Assembly (NCBI RefSeq): GCF_000189755.2
Contig: NZ_KI912183.1
Span: 2,110,257-2,174,256, forward strand
Length of the DNA stretch: 64,000 nucleotides
DNA from: Desulfotomaculum nigrificans DSM 574
Lineage (GTDB): Bacteria; Bacillota; Desulfotomaculia; Desulfotomaculales; Desulfotomaculaceae
Direction of reading: 5' to 3'
Shown: one piece after another, positions 10,808-55,901 of the stretch
Layout: the number at the start of each line of letters is the position of its first letter
Numbering within the stretch: the first letter of the stretch is position 1
The notes under the pieces: generated by a model
Told to the model about the DNA's origin: nothing
Databases searched by the model: none
The model's input: only the letters and a program-made list of their open reading frames with translations
Program-made: the position numbers and the translations under genes

Positions 10808-11397
10808 TCAGGAGAGCTTTCCGTTTACATTTTGAATGACGGCCGCCTTTTGGAGTCTTTTCTCCTCAAACAGGCAGTAAACTGTTGGAATCAGCACCAG
10901 GGTGACCAGGGTTGACACGGCCAGCCCTCCCATCATGGTGATTCCCAGCGGGTTCCATATCTCCGCACCCACACCTCTGGAAATGGCCAGCGGCAGCATG
11001 CCGAAAAAGGTGGCTGTGGTAGTCATCAGAATCGGCCTTAACCTGTTGCGTCCGGCATGGATTATTGCTTCCAGCAAAGGCTGACCTCTATTTTGCAACA
11101 GGTGGGTATAGTCAAGCAAAATAATAGCGTTTTTTACTACAATTCCTGTCAACATGATTATGCCCATGAAAGAAATTAAGCTTAAGGTTGTATTAGTGAA
11201 GTAAAATGCGTAAAACACACCACTCAATCCAAAAGGTACCGCTAACATAACAATTAACGGATCCCTTAAATTGCCGTACAGCGAGGCCATAACCATGTAA
11301 ACAAGGACAATTCCCAGGACCAGCAACAGGCTGAGGTCCTTAAAGGCCTTTTGTTGTTCTTCAACTTCTCCGCCGAAGCTGACTGAAACACCCGGCG
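10808..11397 (-). pseudogene. RND efflux pump (AcrB/CzcA-type), only the C-terminal end
   Basis: About 195 residues remain of a protein normally over 1,000 long. PPGVSVSFGGEVEEQQKAF is the end of the last periplasmic loop, followed by the final membrane helices: LSLLLVLGIVLVYMVMASLY, LSLISFMGIIMLTGIVVKNA (with the family's G-x-V-x-x-N-A block), NRLRPILMTTTATFFGMLPL and a last helix near LVTLVLIPTVYCLFE. The 5' end is joined at about 11,397 to the tail of a tetR-like gene, so the membrane fusion gene and most of the pump gene were lost in one deletion. It is not functional as a pump. Confidence 0.85.
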
Positions 11398-12040: not shown

Positions 12041-12050
12041 TTACATTATA

Positions 12051-12675
12051 TTAAAAGTCTTGTTATCCGCCGCACTGTTGACAGTGTACCCCAAAGCCTC
12101 CGCCAGCGGATTAAGCGGTACATATAAACTGTTATTTACCACCGCCGGTGGTACATCTAAGACTAATTCCTTGCCGTCCAGCACAGCCACTTTCTGGCCA
12201 ACCGTCCAACTAAATCCCCGGCCCCCTTTGATCAGCCCGGCCTGTCCGTTGGACCACTGCACCGTCCCCCCGGTGGCCCGGGCAAAGGACCTTAAATTCA
12301 CCAGCACCTCCGGCTGCCCCTGGGAACTGCCAAGACGGGAGAAAACCAGCCGGCCCCGGTATTTCACCACCACCGGGCTTTCCAGATACCTTCTGATGTT
12401 ATCAGCCAACAAATCATACCCGGCCTGTCTTAAATGAATACCGTCACCGGTTAACCGCGCCGCCAGCCTATCGCCTTCGGTCAATGCCGGGTTGTGATCC
12501 AGGAAAACCAGATCCATTTGCCGGCACAGTTGGGCCAGCCCTGTATTAAGAGGTCGGATATAATCGTTCCATGCGGGATTGCGGGTTAAAAGCACCGACT
12601 GCACTACAATTTTACTGTCAGGTAAGGCTGCTTTGATTCTCTCCAACAGCTTTTGATAGCGGGCCAGTATTTCCT
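12051..12675 (-). pseudogene. Truncated copy of the SGNH hydrolase/stalk-domain gene
   Basis: This segment is nearly the same as 22,100-22,730 and encodes the second half of the SGNH hydrolase (IVVQSVLLTRNPAWNDYIRP, DGIHLRQAGYDLLADN) and its C-terminal stalk domain. Homology starts abruptly at 12,675, so the signal peptide and the catalytic GDS serine block are absent, and ends near 12,051, so the last ~12 residues differ. The remaining ORF (12041-12646) has no good ribosome site. It is a partial duplication, not a working gene. Confidence 0.85.
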
Positions 12676-22056: not shown

Positions 22057-23079
22057 CTATTTCTTAGTAATATTTTCATTAACCCGGGCATCATTTATGG
22101 TAAAGGTCTTCTTATCAGCCGCACTGTTGACAGTGTACCCCAAAGCTTCCGCCAGCGGATTAAGCGGTACATATAAACTGTTATTTACCACCGCCGGTGG
22201 TACATCTAAGACTAATTCCTTGCCGTCCAGCACAGCCACTTTCTGGCCAACCGTCCAACTAAATTCCCGGCCCCCTTTGATCAGCCTGGCCTGTCCGTTG
22301 GACCACTGCACCGTCCCCCCGGTGGCCCGGGCAAAGGACCTTAAATTCACCAGCACCTCCGGCTGCCCCTGGGAACTGCCAAGACGGGAGAAAACCAGCC
22401 GGCCCTGGTATTTCACCACCACCGGGCTTTCCAGATACCTTCTGATGTTATCAGCTAACAAATCATACCCGGCCTGTCTTAAATGAATACCGTCACCGGT
22501 TAACCGCGCCGCCAGCCGGTCCCCTTCGGTTAATACCGGGTTGTGATCCAGAAAAACCAGATCCATTTGCCGGCACAGTTGGGCCAGCCCTGTATTAAGG
22601 GGTCGGATATAATTGTTCCATGCGGGATTGCGGGTCAAAAGCACCGACTGCACGACAATTTTACTGTCAGGTAGGGCCGTTTTGATTCTCTCCAGCAGCT
22701 TTTGATAGCGGGCCAGGATTTCCTCCGGCGGCAGCCAGTAGGCACAAACATCATTGGTGCCCAGCATAATAAAGACTGTTTGCGGTTTTAAATCCAACAC
22801 CGAAACTTTCAGCCGGGAATAGGCATCGGCCACCGCATCCATGCGAATACCCCGGTTAATGATGTTGTAACGCTTCCTCAACTCATCAAAGGGAAAATAC
22901 TCGGTTAAAGAATCCCCTAAAAAAACAATTAACCCGCCTTCACTCTGCAGGTACTTATTTTCCTGTTGGTAGCGCTCTATGTATTTGTCCCAATCCTTAT
23001 ATTTGGCCTCCCCTGTACCGGCCCCCAAAACAGTTTGCAAAAAAATAAGAGTGATTAACAGGATTAATCTTTTTCTCAT
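22057..23079 (-). CDS. Secreted SGNH/GDSL hydrolase with C-terminal stalk domain
   Basis: 340 residues from the ATG at 23079, which has AGAGGGAG just upstream (the ORF extends to 23112). Signal peptide: residues 1-25. SGNH blocks: block I Ser57 in IVFLGDSLTEYF, GTND at 107-110, and the Asp196/His199 pair in TGDGIHLRQAGYD. Residues 225-330 are a copper-amine-oxidase-like stalk domain (VLVNLRSFARATGGTVQW ... SLYVPLNPLAEALGY), thought to bind the cell wall or act as a spacer. Likely an extracellular esterase, for example on acetylated wall polymers. The second half is duplicated at 12,051-12,675. Confidence 0.88.
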   Translation of the reverse strand: MRKRLILLITLIFLQTVLGAGTGEAKYKDWDKYIERYQQENKYLQSEGGLIVFLGDSLTEYFPFDELRKRYNIINRGIRMDAVADAYSRLKVSVLDLKPQTVFIMLGTNDVCAYWLPPEEILARYQKLLERIKTALPDSKIVVQSVLLTRNPAWNNYIRPLNTGLAQLCRQMDLVFLDHNPVLTEGDRLAARLTGDGIHLRQAGYDLLADNIRRYLESPVVVKYQGRLVFSRLGSSQGQPEVLVNLRSFARATGGTVQWSNGQARLIKGGREFSWTVGQKVAVLDGKELVLDVPPAVVNNSLYVPLNPLAEALGYTVNSAADKKTFTINDARVNENITKK

Positions 23080-23119
23080 GGCTTCTCCCTCTGCCTTGTT
23101 ATTTTTATCCATAACAATT

Positions 23120-48931: not shown

Positions 48932-50254
<1,323 letters not shown>

Positions 50255-50620: not shown

Positions 50621-50658
50621 ATAAACAGAAAACACCATTTATGGTGTTTTCTGTTTAT
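50621..50658. terminator. Strong bidirectional terminator
   Basis: An 18-bp perfect stem, ATAAACAGAAAACACCAT and ATGGTGTTTTCTGTTTAT, with a TT loop. It separates the split lipoprotein gene from the convergent TolC-like gene and overlaps the last codon of the latter. Confidence 0.85.
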
Positions 50659-51737
50659 ATATTGATATTTAGCTCACCTGTTAATTTCAACAACAAATCT
50701 AGTTTGGTTGTGTATTGTGAGGCCAGTTCCATCTCAGCATACTTTAGTTTTTCATATGCTATTTCTGCATTTAATACAGCATCTTTGGTAGCTAACCCAA
50801 CCTGCTGCTGCATTTTGACAACACGTAAAGCCTCTTCAGCTTGTTTCCGATTTGCTTTGATCTCATCATATTTTTTCTCCATGTATTGCAGTCCTAACCC
50901 CAAAGACCTTGCTTGCTTTCTAATGAGATCCTTGGTATCATTTGAAGTATTCTTGGCTTGGTCTACATTCCAATCGCCTATGTCATAATATTTCTCAAAT
51001 ATTTTTATGGCATCAGCAATTTTTGCAGCTTCTTCAGCTGACCAAGATTCATAGGAACATTCAGCTGCAATGTTAGCCTTTGACTCGACGTCAATTTTCT
51101 CTGGTTTAAATTCAATAGTGTCGGTTAAAACAGGTCTAGCACTGATATCCAGGTTAACCAGCTTGTTCAGATCGCTATATGCGTTATCTAAACCTGTTTG
51201 GGACTCTTTTACTGAAGCTTTTGCACTCTCTACCGCGGCGCTCGCATTTAGCAAATCCAGTTCAGTGATCAATCCTTGCTCTTTTTTGGCCTTAGCCTGA
51301 AGAAATTTTACTTGAGCCAAATATTCATTTTTCTGTGCTTGTAACAATAACTGTTGCTTCAGTAAAACATTATAGTACGCGGTCTTTACATCTATTATGA
51401 GTTGTCGTTTATCAGACTCTATTTTCTTTTCTTGTTGACGTTCAGCAAATTCCGCTTTAGTATAAGTGGATAAAACATTAGTATCACTTGGATTAAAGGA
51501 ATAATCAACCGGGGTATAACGTACATATGACGCGGCCCGGTCTTTTAAATAGGTTTTTTTGTCAAGTTCTATTTCGTCATTTTTTAGTGTAGGATTATAT
51601 GCAAAAGCCCTTTTTATTGCTTGGTTAAGGTCAAGGCTAATTTGCTTTTGAGATATGTCTTCTGCAACTGCCATTGTCGGAAATAGAGATAGCAAAAACG
51701 TAAAAAGTATAAATTTTAAGCATAGGAATTTGCGCAT
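50655..51737 (-). CDS. TolC-like outer membrane efflux family protein in a monoderm context
   Basis: 360 residues with a signal peptide (FILFTFLLSLFPTMAVA, cut before ED). The body is almost all helix: ISLDLNQAIKRAFAYNPTLK is the usual TolC opening, ESDKRQLIIDVKTAYYNVLL and LKQQLLLQAQKNEYLAQVKF the first helical pair, LGLQYMEKKYDEIKANRKQA and AVLNAEIAYEKLKYAEMELA the second repeat. It is somewhat shorter than TolC (about 430) and the beta-barrel segments are hard to see. Some Desulfotomaculum-like monoderms carry such proteins. It lies directly behind the S-layer-like gene, so a wall or S-layer function is possible. Confidence 0.75.
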   Translation of the reverse strand: MRKFLCLKFILFTFLLSLFPTMAVAEDISQKQISLDLNQAIKRAFAYNPTLKNDEIELDKKTYLKDRAASYVRYTPVDYSFNPSDTNVLSTYTKAEFAERQQEKKIESDKRQLIIDVKTAYYNVLLKQQLLLQAQKNEYLAQVKFLQAKAKKEQGLITELDLLNASAAVESAKASVKESQTGLDNAYSDLNKLVNLDISARPVLTDTIEFKPEKIDVESKANIAAECSYESWSAEEAAKIADAIKIFEKYYDIGDWNVDQAKNTSNDTKDLIRKQARSLGLGLQYMEKKYDEIKANRKQAEEALRVVKMQQQVGLATKDAVLNAEIAYEKLKYAEMELASQYTTKLDLLLKLTGELNINI

Positions 51738-51788
51738 AGCAGCATCACTCCTGTTTATAGAGAGAAGACTTAACTACTTATTATTATT

Positions 51789-51820
51789 AAGAAGGCCCAG
51801 ACAAATGTCTGGGCCTTCTT
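51789..51820. terminator. Terminator between the S-layer-like and TolC-like genes
   Basis: AAGAAGGCCCAGAC and GTCTGGGCCTTCTT pair perfectly over 14 bp around AAAT, with AATT and TTATTATT flanks. Strong enough to end a highly expressed transcript. Confidence 0.9.
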
Positions 51821-51842
51821 AATTTAGTTAGTTAGCAATCAC

Positions 51843-54164
51843 CTAGTAGGAGATTACAACAGTTCCGTTACCATAACCAACTTGTGCGCCGAAAGCTTCA
51901 GCTACGAAGCGGGCAGGCAACATAGTACGTCCATTGTTAATTTCAGGAGCTACGTCCATAGCGGTTACTGTTTCACCAACAGACAGGTTCTTGTCGCCAA
52001 TAACCAGCTTAACAACCTTGTCACCTTTGGTTAAGGTTACAGTGCCTGTAGTTGCGTCGTATTGGATGTTATCATCAGTTACACCAATGGCATAAGCCAA
52101 GTAACGAACAGGAACATAGGTGCGTCCATCTTTAATATAGGGAGCAGCATCCATTACTTTTGCAACACCGTTTACAGTGTATACGGTAGCGCCAATGTTG
52201 AAGGAGGCAGAACCAGCTTCAGGAGCAGCGTTTACAACAACACCGGGATATACGCTAGCAGCGGTGGAAGCATCAAAGTATGCATCTTCATCTGCACCTA
52301 CGCCATTATGGGTTTCGGTTACAGCAGTACCTTTAATTTTAACTTGAACACCACCCACTGCAACGGTACGATCGATATCAAATACTACATTGCTCACCTT
52401 AATGGTGCTGGGTTGGGTGCTGTCGTTATCAATGTTAATCTTAATCAAGTCGTCAGTATGACCATCTTTAGCAGTACCCTTGTTTACTGTTCCAAGTTCA
52501 ATATTACCTTCAGTAACTTCAACGGTAGGAGTTTTTGCAAATTTAACACCATCAGCAGGAACGTTTAATTCAAGAACGCCCTCTTTCAGAGCACCCTTCT
52601 TATTCTCTTTAATGATGATGTCACCGGCTACCTGGCCTTGAACACCCAGCTTGAGATCCTTAACGTTTTCAACAGTCGCGGTTACAGGAGCAATAGACTT
52701 ACCAACTAACACCTCTTGCTCTTCAATACCAGAAGAGGAGGTAACCTTTACATTGATGTCGCCAGGATTTGCAACAGAAGTATTAACTTTCTTCAGTTCA
52801 ACTTCAATCTTGGCGGCTTTCTTAGGAGCTGAGCTAGATCTGCTAATGGTTAATTCTGCCTTATGCCTGTCGGAAGGATCAACCTTGAAATCGTTGCCAC
52901 TTAGAACGTCGTCCCCTTCCTTGAGGGTAGTATTTAATGTATCGTAGCCTTCAGCAAACTTAGCAAAATCGGGAAGTTCAATGGTAATTTTCCGACCATT
53001 AACCAAGCTACCAGCAGCAGTTTCTTCGATAACCAGTTTGCCTAATTCAACTTCTTTTTCCCCAGCAATAACTTCTTCAACAGATTTAGCGGTTACAGTA
53101 GCGCCATATGCGCCATACTTAGCAACAGTAACAGTTTGGGAAGCAACATTGTCACCATCAATATCAATGGTTACGTCGCCATAGTCAGCATCGGACTCAA
53201 CATCTACATACGGAGTGATTTCAATAATACCACGGGTAGAGGTCTTAGTCCAAGTAGTTGAGCCAGGACCAAATTTAATGGTGATCTCATCATCCGCAGT
53301 CTTACTTGCTAAAATTTGATTGTTATCACTAGTAGCAGAGTTTTTGGTATATTTATAACCAGCAAACCCACCCATCAAGGTAATGTGGTTCAGGGTTTCT
53401 TCGTTAAACTTAAAGCCGTTATTAAGGGTTAAAGTAACTTCATCGCCTTTTTCAAAGTTACCAGCGGTAGCTTCAGTGATTCTGACGGTACCAACTTTTT
53501 GGTTGTTGGAATCGCCAATACTTTCCACATTCAGCACTTTATTGTCACTGCTGCCGCCATCTACGATACGTGCAACTAAAACTTCGCCGCTTGATACCCC
53601 GGAATCCAAACCGTCAATATCTACGTTGAGATCGCCACTAGCACCATCCACGATTACAAACAGGTTTAGCGCAAATACGCTTTCTCCGTTACCATTACCT
53701 GTAAAGGTAACGTTTAATGTTCTTTCGTTAGAGAAAGTTGCTTCAACAGGAATGTTACCTGTAATCATAGAGTTACCGTTTTGATCTTCTACAGTTTTAC
53801 CGGAAACGGTACCAGAAAAATCGGTTTTATAAACGTTTGTATCGTTATCTTTAATGCCCCACCCTTCTTGCACTTCTTGCCAGCCATTAGCGCTATCATA
53901 GGTAGCAAACTTAACACCATCGGGGAGGGTAATTACAAAGGAATCACCTGCTTTAAAATCTTGCGCATATACAGAACCAGTAACGTTGTTGCTATCTTCT
54001 TTAATACTCAGAGTAGATAAGAAACCTTCAAAATCATTTTTCACGGTGATTACTTTAGTAACTTTGTTGTCGGTTACAGCTGCCGCAGGCATGGCGGGCA
54101 GGAGCAGGCCAATTAACATAGCCAGTGTAACCATAATAGAGACTACCTTACGTGCTCTTTTCAA
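51843..54164 (-). CDS. Large secreted surface (S-layer-like) protein with stalk domain
   Basis: 773 residues. TTG start with AGGAGGT 7 bases upstream. Signal peptide MKRARKVVSIMVTLAMLIGL then LPAMPAAAV. Residues about 35-640 are a run of beta-rich repeats with recurring phrases such as 'ItEatAGnFekGdevtLtLn' and 'leeTAAGSLVNGRKITIELP'. The C-terminal ~130 residues are a copper-amine-oxidase-like stalk domain (YIKDGRTYVPVRYLAYAIGV, EINNGRTMLPARFVAEAFGA). Strong ribosome site, long AT-rich leader and strong terminator suggest high expression. No SLH motif, so wall attachment is probably through the stalk domain. Confidence 0.85.
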   Translation of the reverse strand: MKRARKVVSIMVTLAMLIGLLLPAMPAAAVTDNKVTKVITVKNDFEGFLSTLSIKEDSNNVTGSVYAQDFKAGDSFVITLPDGVKFATYDSANGWQEVQEGWGIKDNDTNVYKTDFSGTVSGKTVEDQNGNSMITGNIPVEATFSNERTLNVTFTGNGNGESVFALNLFVIVDGASGDLNVDIDGLDSGVSSGEVLVARIVDGGSSDNKVLNVESIGDSNNQKVGTVRITEATAGNFEKGDEVTLTLNNGFKFNEETLNHITLMGGFAGYKYTKNSATSDNNQILASKTADDEITIKFGPGSTTWTKTSTRGIIEITPYVDVESDADYGDVTIDIDGDNVASQTVTVAKYGAYGATVTAKSVEEVIAGEKEVELGKLVIEETAAGSLVNGRKITIELPDFAKFAEGYDTLNTTLKEGDDVLSGNDFKVDPSDRHKAELTISRSSSAPKKAAKIEVELKKVNTSVANPGDINVKVTSSSGIEEQEVLVGKSIAPVTATVENVKDLKLGVQGQVAGDIIIKENKKGALKEGVLELNVPADGVKFAKTPTVEVTEGNIELGTVNKGTAKDGHTDDLIKINIDNDSTQPSTIKVSNVVFDIDRTVAVGGVQVKIKGTAVTETHNGVGADEDAYFDASTAASVYPGVVVNAAPEAGSASFNIGATVYTVNGVAKVMDAAPYIKDGRTYVPVRYLAYAIGVTDDNIQYDATTGTVTLTKGDKVVKLVIGDKNLSVGETVTAMDVAPEINNGRTMLPARFVAEAFGAQVGYGNGTVVISY

Positions 54165-54413: not shown

Positions 54414-55901
54414 CTATTTAAGAGAAACTCCTAGCAGTTTTTTCTGTTCCGTGATAACCACTAGCTTATTACTTTCAATTTGTTCGATTTGATTTACACC
54501 TGATTTAATATTTCTGTCGAAAACTATTTCGCCATTTGAGTTTATAATCAATATTCTCCCATCTTTTGTTCCGGCGAGGATTCCTGTACTCCCTAAGTTG
54601 ATGGTGTTAAGTCCACTAATAGGTATTTCCCAAGCCTTATTTCCTCTTAAGTCTACGGCAAGAAGTCGTCCTGTGAGGGGCAAATAAATTGTATTGTCTT
54701 GTATAAGTGGCTTTGCTATTAAATCCCCGTCTACAATTCGATCCCAATCTCGCTGTTGGCCCATTATGTCGTACAATGTAATCATAGTTTTCATTTCACC
54801 AAGCTGTTGGCCTATCAACCCATAACCTCTGCTATCATCATAAACAAAGCATTTAAGATCTCCTGCAGTTGTTATATAATTCTTCCATATTACATTACCT
54901 TTAAAATCAAGTTTTATTAGAGCTAATGGATTTGTATCCAGGAATATTGTGTCATTTCGGTGTGTCGCAATCCTATTGTTAATTGCTATTAAATTCGTTT
55001 CCATATTGCCCTCTGGATTATATTGCCACCTTTTTATCCCTTCATGATCATAAGCCATTAGCATATTTTTTTGAGTAACATATACATATTTTTTATCAGC
55101 CGTTACATCAAAAGGCTTCTTATGCCCCTCAAAATCTGTCGAATAGGTAGTTTTCCACTCAATATTGCCATCTTTCGAAATTTTATAAAGTATCCTAGTA
55201 AACTTGTTGCCCTCTTTAAAATCAGAAGTGGCTACATAAATATTGTGATCAGGTGCATACAAAGGTGTACCGACAAACTGATCCTCTTCTGGTGTATCCC
55301 CTTCCTTTCCCAATACTAATGTCCAAGCCACATAACCATCTTTATTTATTTTTGCTAACTTATTCCCGTAAGGTACCAGTATCCCATCATCTATGTTTAC
55401 TAATTCTCCAAAACTGTTTTTCCCAAGATTTTGTTCCCATTCAACAATATTTTTGAGATCCCAATATCCATCTTTTAGGGTAATTTTATCACCATCTTTA
55501 TCATACTCAGCGACCACACCAAAATAATCTGAGACAGGTTTAAGAGGAAGGTAAATTAACCCTGAGGATATTTTGGGAAGAACCAAACTTCTAAGCAAGA
55601 TATTTTTCCCATCCTGGGTATAGTAATTTCTATCAATGTAAAACATTAATTTTTTATTATCCTTACTTAGCACAACTGTTTTGGTAGCTGGTTGATAATC
55701 AAATTTTAAACCTAAGGTATCTGTTAATACCTTAGACGGAACTAATATACTGTCAATACTATCTTCATTAATTATCAAAGGTGCAGGTGGTAAAATTTTA
55801 TCCGTATTATGAAAAAGATCAGTGGCATAAGCTGGTGTTGAAATGATAATTAAAGAAACCCCCAGACCTGCCATAAAACTTGCAAGCATTTTTTTTATCA
55901 T
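54414..55901 (-). CDS. Secreted beta-propeller (PQQ-like) protein with N-terminal stalk domain
   Basis: 495 residues. Signal peptide MIKKMLASFMAGLGVSLIII to about residue 27 (STPAYA). Residues 35-150 are a copper-amine-oxidase-like stalk domain (SILVPSKVLTDTLGLKFDYQ, SGLIYLPLKPVSDYFGVVAE). From about residue 160 there are repeats with W-x-x-x-L pattern, as in PQQ-like propellers: YVAWTLVLGKEGDTPEEDQF, GNIEWKTTYSTDFEGHKKPF, EGIKRWQYNPEGNMETNLIA, GNVIWKNYITTAGDLKCFVY, GNKAWEIPISGLNTINLGST. Likely extracellular; a scaffold or sensor role is inferred. GAGGGCGCC precedes the ATG. Confidence 0.8.
   Translation of the reverse strand: MIKKMLASFMAGLGVSLIIISTPAYATDLFHNTDKILPPAPLIINEDSIDSILVPSKVLTDTLGLKFDYQPATKTVVLSKDNKKLMFYIDRNYYTQDGKNILLRSLVLPKISSGLIYLPLKPVSDYFGVVAEYDKDGDKITLKDGYWDLKNIVEWEQNLGKNSFGELVNIDDGILVPYGNKLAKINKDGYVAWTLVLGKEGDTPEEDQFVGTPLYAPDHNIYVATSDFKEGNKFTRILYKISKDGNIEWKTTYSTDFEGHKKPFDVTADKKYVYVTQKNMLMAYDHEGIKRWQYNPEGNMETNLIAINNRIATHRNDTIFLDTNPLALIKLDFKGNVIWKNYITTAGDLKCFVYDDSRGYGLIGQQLGEMKTMITLYDIMGQQRDWDRIVDGDLIAKPLIQDNTIYLPLTGRLLAVDLRGNKAWEIPISGLNTINLGSTGILAGTKDGRILIINSNGEIVFDRNIKSGVNQIEQIESNKLVVITEQKKLLGVSLK

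What the first reader, a model, noticed from the sequence alone, without database searches (positions are those of the whole stretch)
50655..54164. TolC-family protein encoded next to an S-layer-like protein in a monoderm
TolC is an outer-membrane channel, yet all other genes here (SpoIID, LCP, MntA/HepT, S-layer-like protein) indicate a Gram-positive spore former. The protein has a signal peptide and the duplicated helical layout but is shorter than usual. It might form a channel through the S-layer or wall, or be a leftover from a diderm ancestor, as proposed for some clostridial lineages.
Basis: partly seen in the sequence, partly recalled or inferred. Interest (0 to 1): 0.5.

Follow-up and report, generated by a model that had tools for sequence, protein, structure and literature searches.

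The report
Barrel-less TolC beside surface-protein gene
A single-membrane, spore-forming bacterium makes a relative of the Gram-negative exit channel TolC that keeps the long helical tunnel but lacks the part that sits in an outer membrane, and in most relatives that have it the gene lies beside a gene for a surface protein, which suggests that pumps here may vent through the cell wall to a protein coat.

Summary
50655-51737(-) encodes a secreted OEP/TolC-family protein; 51843-54164(-) encodes a beta-domain surface protein. The host is monoderm by the genes tested: no Omp85 or LpxC in its complete 3.05 Mb genome, no Omp85 in 60 genomes of its order (host included). A confident AlphaFold2 model (pLDDT 88) shows the TolC two-repeat helical bundle (Z 26.6 to E. 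coli TolC, 2.5 A over 316 residues), but where TolC has its two barrel hairpins there are only a loop and a turn.

It is not a relic. A relative was found in 51 of 60 genomes; in 36 of these a long surface-protein match lies upstream on the same strand within 3 kb (11 of 16 families). In two lineages the TolC-like protein is fused to PF07833, the domain that ends the surface protein. RND pumps occur in 57 of 60; the host has three full-length RND genes and one OEP. Omp85-positive relatives have the short form too, with a long OEP in the same cluster (nine of nine loci, seven chosen with that hint).

Best reading: outer conduit of tripartite pumps across a Gram-positive wall, ending at the wall or surface layer. 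The S-layer idea was published in 2022; the linkage, fusions and short/long pairs I did not find in print.

The parts
50655..51737 (-). Barrel-less TolC/OEP-family protein, 360 aa
   Evidence: PF02321 1.5e-16; AF2 pLDDT 88.1, pTM 0.81, helical TolC bundle; VIA Z 26.6 to E. coli TolC
51663..51737 (-). Signal peptide, about residues 1-25
   Evidence: sequence by eye; similar leaders in relatives; no signal-peptide program run
51492..51524 (-). Residues 72-82, short loop where TolC has its first beta-hairpin
   Evidence: AF2 secondary structure, pLDDT 59-73 here; comparison with E. coli TolC
50982..50993 (-). Residues 249-252, turn where TolC has its second beta-hairpin
   Evidence: AF2 secondary structure, pLDDT about 70 here; inter-tip distance 159 against 218
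51273..51275 (-). Gly155, first tunnel tip
   Evidence: invariant in 26 aligned sequences; aligns with the tip glycine of E. coli TolC
50796..50798 (-). Gly314, second tunnel tip
   Evidence: invariant in 26 aligned sequences; aligns with the second tip glycine of E. coli TolC
51789..51820 (-). Strong hairpin between the two genes, perhaps an attenuating terminator (not in the terminator scan's list: no run of T after it)
   Evidence: sequence; z -7.0, and a strong hairpin in 20 of 20 intergenic stretches folded; scan
51843..54164 (-). S-layer-like surface protein, 773 aa: beta-domain array plus C-terminal PF07833
   Evidence: AF2 nearly all-beta, mean pLDDT 69; highest codon adaptation of 46 window ORFs, 0.758 against 0.757 for the next

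Best explanation
The gene at 50655-51737 encodes a secreted TolC-family protein without the outer-membrane beta-barrel. Shown at sequence and model level: the family, the helical bundle, the loss of both barrel hairpins, conservation across the order, linkage to the surface-protein gene, absence of Omp85. Inferred: three copies form a hollow helical tunnel whose inner tips dock on the adaptor (membrane-fusion) proteins of RND and ABC/MacB-type pumps, so that substrates cross the thick wall, while the outer end is held by the wall or by the surface lattice made by the gene next door instead of by a lipid membrane. One copy would serve several pumps, as E. coli TolC does (recalled). The hairpin between the two genes would let the surface protein be made in excess over the tunnel protein.
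For: Fold: pLDDT 88.1, pTM 0.81, helices only apart from two 2-residue bridges; VIA Z 26.6, 2.5 A over 316 residues to TolC. Barrel absent: inter-tip distance 159-179 in 64 rows (63 distinct proteins) from Omp85-negative genomes, 218 in E. coli TolC, 194-283 in 12 long OEPs from Omp85-positive genomes. No Omp85 in 60 of 60. Match to this protein in 51 of 60. Linkage: 36 of 51 within 3 kb, 29 within 500 nt, 11 of 16 families, while outer neighbours change. Fusion of OEP to PF07833 in L037 and L096. Pumps: PF00873 in 57 of 60; three full-length RND genes in the own genome. In other genomes the OEP lies in MacA-MacB gene sets (L072) or beside MFP-RND genes. Tip glycines invariant in 26 sequences. 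RxxxLxxxxxx[ST] in 2 of 3 own adaptors and 7 of 7 from other Omp85-negative loci; RxxxLxxxxxxS is the TolC-docking motif of PMC3391258 (passages). Dred_3141, a PF02321 protein, was detected in the Desulfotomaculum reducens surfaceome (PMC4137172, passages).
Against: No experiment shows a channel, docking or S-layer location, and the surface protein is S-layer-like by inference only. RND pumps occur in genomes where no relative of this OEP was detected (9 of 60 lack a match; two of those nine are under 90% complete), and 4 of 6 adaptors from such genomes also carry the motif, so the motif is not tied to the OEP; one of three own adaptors lacks it. The own OEP is not in a pump operon. Short OEPs also occur in Omp85-positive genomes (17 rows from 15 genomes), so lack of a barrel does not by itself imply an S-layer seat. 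In 15 of 51 genomes no linkage within 3 kb was counted, and at least two genomes (G021, G051) have a long surface-protein match and no detected relative of the OEP. The model is least sure (pLDDT 59-73) exactly at the two missing hairpins; there the short length is the stronger evidence.
Confidence: 0.58

Rival explanations
1. The protein is a structural tether: a helical rod that links adaptors or membrane to wall and surface layer, with no conduit role.
For: No barrel; fused to PF07833 in two lineages; strong genetic link to the surface-protein gene.
Against: The whole TolC bundle and both tip glycines are kept, and other members lie in pump gene sets.
Confidence: 0.15
2. It is a secretion or assembly factor for the neighbouring surface protein, like type I secretion of S-layer proteins in Gram-negatives (the surfaceome authors of PMC4137172 raised type I secretion).
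For: Conserved adjacency; the suggestion in PMC4137172 (passages).
Against: The surface protein has its own leader; no ABC exporter gene is among the ORFs around the host locus that I read; G021 and G051 have the surface protein without a detected relative of this OEP.
Confidence: 0.12
3. It exports cell-surface polysaccharide made by the glycan locus that follows (Wzz, O-antigen-ligase-like).
For: The ligase-like gene follows in 12 of 39 loci tabulated (WIN_52); Wzz and Wzy_C domains in the window.
Against: In the other 27 of 39 it is not among the next five genes, while the surface-protein gene is upstream in many of them.
Confidence: 0.07
4. It is a decaying leftover of a diderm ancestor with no current role.
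For: No Omp85 remains; in one relative, G007, the frame holds a stop.
Against: 51 of 60 genomes keep it; invariant tips; a PF02321 protein of a close relative is found as protein.
Confidence: 0.04
5. The host is diderm and this is an ordinary outer-membrane channel.
For: Family name only.
Against: No Omp85, no LpxC; no barrel; sporulation-type genes beside it (labels recalled).
Confidence: 0.02

Closest known systems
E. coli TolC (outer membrane factor)
   Same: Two-repeat helical bundle, tip glycines, OEP family
   Different: Both beta-hairpins that make the barrel are missing; the host lacks the outer-membrane genes tested; 59 residues fewer between the tips
TolC-like proteins of monoderm Firmicutes (PLoS Biol 2022, PMC8809574; first author Stubenrauch, name recalled; section 8 and passages seen)
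   Same: Monoderm host, pump partners, proposed S-layer seat; their C. difficile homology model had an omission in the beta-barrel domain
   Different: They show 12 proteins in 5 families and argue from the presence of S-layer proteins; in the parts I saw there is no surface-gene adjacency, PF07833 fusion or short/long pair; no hit in the main text for Desulfotomaculum or Peptococcaceae; supplements not seen. One of their operons (L. gingivalis) holds two TolC-like genes (figure legend)
Dred_3141 of Desulfotomaculum reducens (PMC4137172, passages)
   Same: PF02321 protein found in surface extracts of a close relative
MacA-MacB-TolC and AcrA-AcrB-TolC pumps
   Same: The same three kinds of component are encoded together in several relatives
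   Different: The outer component lacks the membrane barrel, and in the host it is encoded with the surface protein, not with a pump

Membership tests
OEP / outer membrane efflux protein family (PF02321) | Two OEP repeats above the curated cut-off | tested here: met
   61.2 bits against 22, two stretches
TolC-type outer membrane channel | Helical tunnel bundle | tested here: met
   AF2 and VIA-align
TolC-type outer membrane channel | Four strands per monomer forming an outer-membrane beta-barrel | tested here: not met
   No barrel strands in the model; inter-tip distance 159 against 218
TolC-type outer membrane channel | Outer membrane and its assembly machinery in the host | tested here: not met
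   No Omp85, no LpxC; LptD not searched
TolC-type outer membrane channel | Homotrimer | not testable with these tools
   only a monomer could be modelled
Outer component of a tripartite efflux pump | Docking of its tips on an adaptor protein | tested here: inconclusive
   Tip glycines invariant, motif in 2 of 3 own adaptors, but also in 4 of 6 adaptors of genomes without a detected relative of the OEP; no binding data
Outer component of a tripartite efflux pump | Encoded with adaptor and transporter | tested here: inconclusive
   True in several relatives, not in the host locus
S-layer protein (neighbour gene) | Secreted, wall-associated, very abundant, lattice-forming | tested here: inconclusive
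   Leader and PF07833, beta-domain array, top codon adaptation; lattice not testable; no SLH domain in it, though SLH proteins exist in the genome; Foldseek gave only generic beta-sandwich proteins

The most novel reading that the evidence does not exclude
Tripartite pumps of a Gram-positive order vent through a barrel-less TolC tunnel lodged in the protein surface layer, so that this layer stands in for the outer membrane; and the barrel-less tunnel is an old, separate conduit segment that in diderm relatives works together with a long, barrelled TolC and was kept alone when the outer membrane was lost.
Probability: 0.3. Interest if true: 0.82.

Novelty: new variant of a known kind. Interest (0 to 1): 0.62.

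Why it matters
TolC is regarded as an outer-membrane protein. A conserved TolC without the membrane part, tied genetically to a surface-protein gene across an order of single-membrane bacteria, makes a published speculation (the S-layer as the seat of TolC in monoderms) directly testable, and shows what efflux machinery may keep and lose where there is no outer membrane. The pairing of a short and a long TolC in Omp85-positive relatives is a second question open to test.

Tried and rejected
Diderm host: rejected by Omp85 and LpxC searches. Extra OEPs in the own genome: the two other PF02321 places are adaptor coiled coils. Tree to decide whether the barrel was lost once: five changes of the barrel label, weak deep branches, long branches; inconclusive. 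Adaptor motif as a marker of OEP presence: not specific (own 2 of 3, order loci 9 of 15 with 2.2 expected from shuffles, other Omp85-negative 7 of 7, Omp85-positive 4 of 7, genomes without a detected relative 4 of 6). OmpM: all 10 SLH frames of the own genome were scanned, two as cut frames, none with a porin domain; LptD was not searched. Defence library: no match. Foldseek on the surface protein gave generic beta-sandwich proteins, so S-layer identity stays an inference.

Counts, dropped rows and limits: the 60-genome counts include the host. Absence in 9 of 60 means no match to P0001 at E <= 0.001; six of these nine have PF02321 matches, of which those in G011, G056 and one of two in G051 I found in adaptor frames and the rest I did not check. 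In some searches my gene caller missed the OEP of L048, so 39 of 40 loci were tabulated; 27 of 39 had a surface gene of 600 aa or more among the three genes upstream on the same strand. The count 36 of 51 uses coordinates copied; matches to the PF07833 part alone were left out and the listing is capped, so it is a lower bound. In one search three rows were dropped (two poor matches L135 and L136, and the broken L041), stop-to-stop frames were used for many rows, and one protein is in twice (L074, L177). In one search two loci with spacings of 15 and 16 nt were left out. Omp85-positive clusters were looked at in 9 of 28 such genomes, and seven of these nine were picked when one search already showed a second match nearby; 'barrelled' for the long OEPs rests on length and profile coverage, no model was made. 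The phylum cross-table (27 of 28 Omp85-positive and 53 of 91 Omp85-negative genomes with an OEP-profile match) was counted by hand; weak matches there may be adaptors. Literature claims rest on nine searches of one open library.
Full report
What is there. The window holds an OEP/TolC-family gene at 50655-51737(-) and, 105 nt upstream of it on the same strand, a 773-aa surface-protein gene at 51843-54164(-). The OEP has two PF02321 stretches (1.5e-16). It is the only true OEP found in the 3.05 Mb, one-contig genome; the other two PF02321 places are adaptor coiled coils. Named relatives of the protein come from Desulfofundulus, Desulfoscipio, Pelotomaculum, Desulfovirgula, Desulforudis and several MAGs, so the host lies near Desulfotomaculum. 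One congener, G006, has a contig of 3,608,104 bases, which I recall as the size of the D. reducens MI-1 genome.

Monoderm. No Omp85 and no LpxC in the own genome; no Omp85 in 60 genomes, host included. The Omp85 control rang in 7 of 14 control genomes, E. coli and Thermotoga among them; the LpxC control in 4 of 14. PMC5007114 (passages; first author Antunes, name recalled) states that Peptococcaceae have a monoderm phenotype and no homologues of outer-membrane markers. The own genome has 10 frames with SLH domains; none of them showed a porin domain (two were scanned as cut frames).

Fold. With 17 homologues the AlphaFold2 model reached pLDDT 88.1 and pTM 0.81. The helices follow TolC: two short helices, loop 72-82, long helix 83-153, tip, helix 159-194, then the same pattern with the turn 249-252. 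The 44 Foldseek matches at E <= 0.001 are outer-membrane-factor chains by their titles, six being titled only as a P. aeruginosa membrane protein; VIA-align gives Z 26.6 at 2.5 A over 316 residues for E. coli TolC. Where TolC has its two beta-hairpins the model has only a loop and a turn; confidence is lowest there (59-73), but the length alone leaves no room for a barrel. The distance between the two tips is 159 here, 218 in E. coli TolC, 159-179 in 64 rows from Omp85-negative genomes, and 194-283 in 12 long OEPs from Omp85-positive genomes.

Conservation and linkage. A match to the protein is found in 51 of 60 genomes, host included. In 36 of these 51 a long surface-protein match lies upstream on the same strand within 3 kb, in 29 within 500 nt, in 11 of 16 families. 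In close relatives a block like that of the window (MurA, SpoIID, M23 peptidase, SpoIIID and Mbl by my reading of the sequences) lies upstream, but in other families the outer neighbours differ (a sigma factor with a zinc-finger partner, an SLH subtilase) while the pair stays. A strong hairpin lies between the two genes in 20 of 20 intergenic stretches folded. Among 46 window ORFs of 150 aa or more the surface gene has the highest codon adaptation (0.758; the next is 0.757), the OEP 0.635, rank 18. That fits an abundant coat protein followed by a scarcer tunnel protein; it is not a measurement. In L037 and L096 the OEP carries a C-terminal PF07833 domain (4.4e-41 and 3.8e-34), the domain that ends the surface protein.

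Pumps. RND transporters occur in 57 of 60 genomes. The host has three full-length RND genes, two with an adaptor beside them, and an HlyD-type adaptor in an ABC locus. In L072 the OEP follows response regulator, kinase, MacA-like adaptor, ABC ATPase and MacB; in L054 it lies one gene before MarR, adaptor and RND. In six of eleven other Omp85-negative clusters the OEP is beside MFP and RND genes, in four beside the surface gene. G155, L204 and G314 are the only invariant columns of 26 diverse sequences. The TolC-docking motif RxxxLxxxxxxS (PMC3391258, passages), with S or T, is found in 2 of 3 own adaptors, 9 of 15 in the order loci (2.2 expected from shuffles), 7 of 7 in other Omp85-negative loci, 4 of 7 in Omp85-positive loci, and also in 4 of 6 from genomes without a detected relative of this OEP; it supports docking only weakly.

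Omp85-positive relatives. In a sample of 119 genomes of the phylum 28 have Omp85 and 80 match the OEP profile. In Omp85-positive genomes I found the same short form (17 rows from 15 genomes) and, in nine of nine gene clusters looked at, a second, longer OEP in the same cluster; seven of the nine were picked with a second match already in view, two were not. Seven of the nine long ones match PF02321 from position 4 or before, that is with the hairpin part. In 11 Omp85-negative clusters no long OEP was found, also with a profile made from the long ones. So the short form is not simply a product of outer-membrane loss. Whether it arose once could not be decided.

What was known. PMC8809574 (2022; section 8 and passages) reported TolC-like proteins in monoderm Firmicutes, proposed that they sit in the S-layer as part of tripartite pumps, and noted an omission in the barrel domain of a C. 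difficile model. PMC4137172 (2014; passages) detected the PF02321 protein Dred_3141 in the surfaceome of D. reducens. My additions are the order-wide linkage to the surface gene, the PF07833 fusions, the confident barrel-less model, the two-class inter-tip measure, and the short/long pairs. I did not see these in the parts of the papers read or in the listings of the nine searches named under Tried and rejected; that does not prove them unpublished.

Verdict. Barrel-less OEP in a monoderm: near certain at sequence and model level. Conduit of tripartite pumps ending at the wall or surface layer: most likely, unproven. It resembles TolC in fold and context, but it is not a TolC outer-membrane channel, because the barrel and the membrane are absent.

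Noticed in passing
window 10808-11326: C-terminal fragment of an RND pump (PF00873 positions 842-1020), close to a TnpB-like and a serine-recombinase-like gene (labels recalled from the sequence).
   Followed up: partly
window 12041-12646 and 22057-23112: An SGNH-hydrolase-like gene with a PF07833-like end (labels recalled) and a truncated near-copy of it about 10 kb away.
   Followed up: no
window 49047-50093: IS30-like transposase gene (label recalled) just downstream of the OEP gene, between it and the glycan locus.
   Followed up: no
window 54414-55901: Beta-propeller protein (PQQ_2) with PF07833, weakly BamB-like below the NCBIfam cut-off, upstream of the surface-protein gene.
   Followed up: partly
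L138-L146: Omp85-positive relatives carry a short and a long OEP in one gene cluster; in 6 of 17 short OEPs from such genomes the second tip glycine is Asp.
   Followed up: partly
L158, L159, L162, L167: A second, divergent short OEP type in some members of the order (inter-tip 163-164), in G006 far from the surface gene.
   Followed up: partly
L054, L065, L068, L069 intergenic stretches: Promoter-like TTGACT and TATACT boxes after the hairpin where the spacing is long (by eye), so the OEP may have its own promoter there.
   Followed up: no
L012 and L041 (G007): The OEP frame of this genome is interrupted by a stop codon; the assembly is 72% complete.
   Followed up: no
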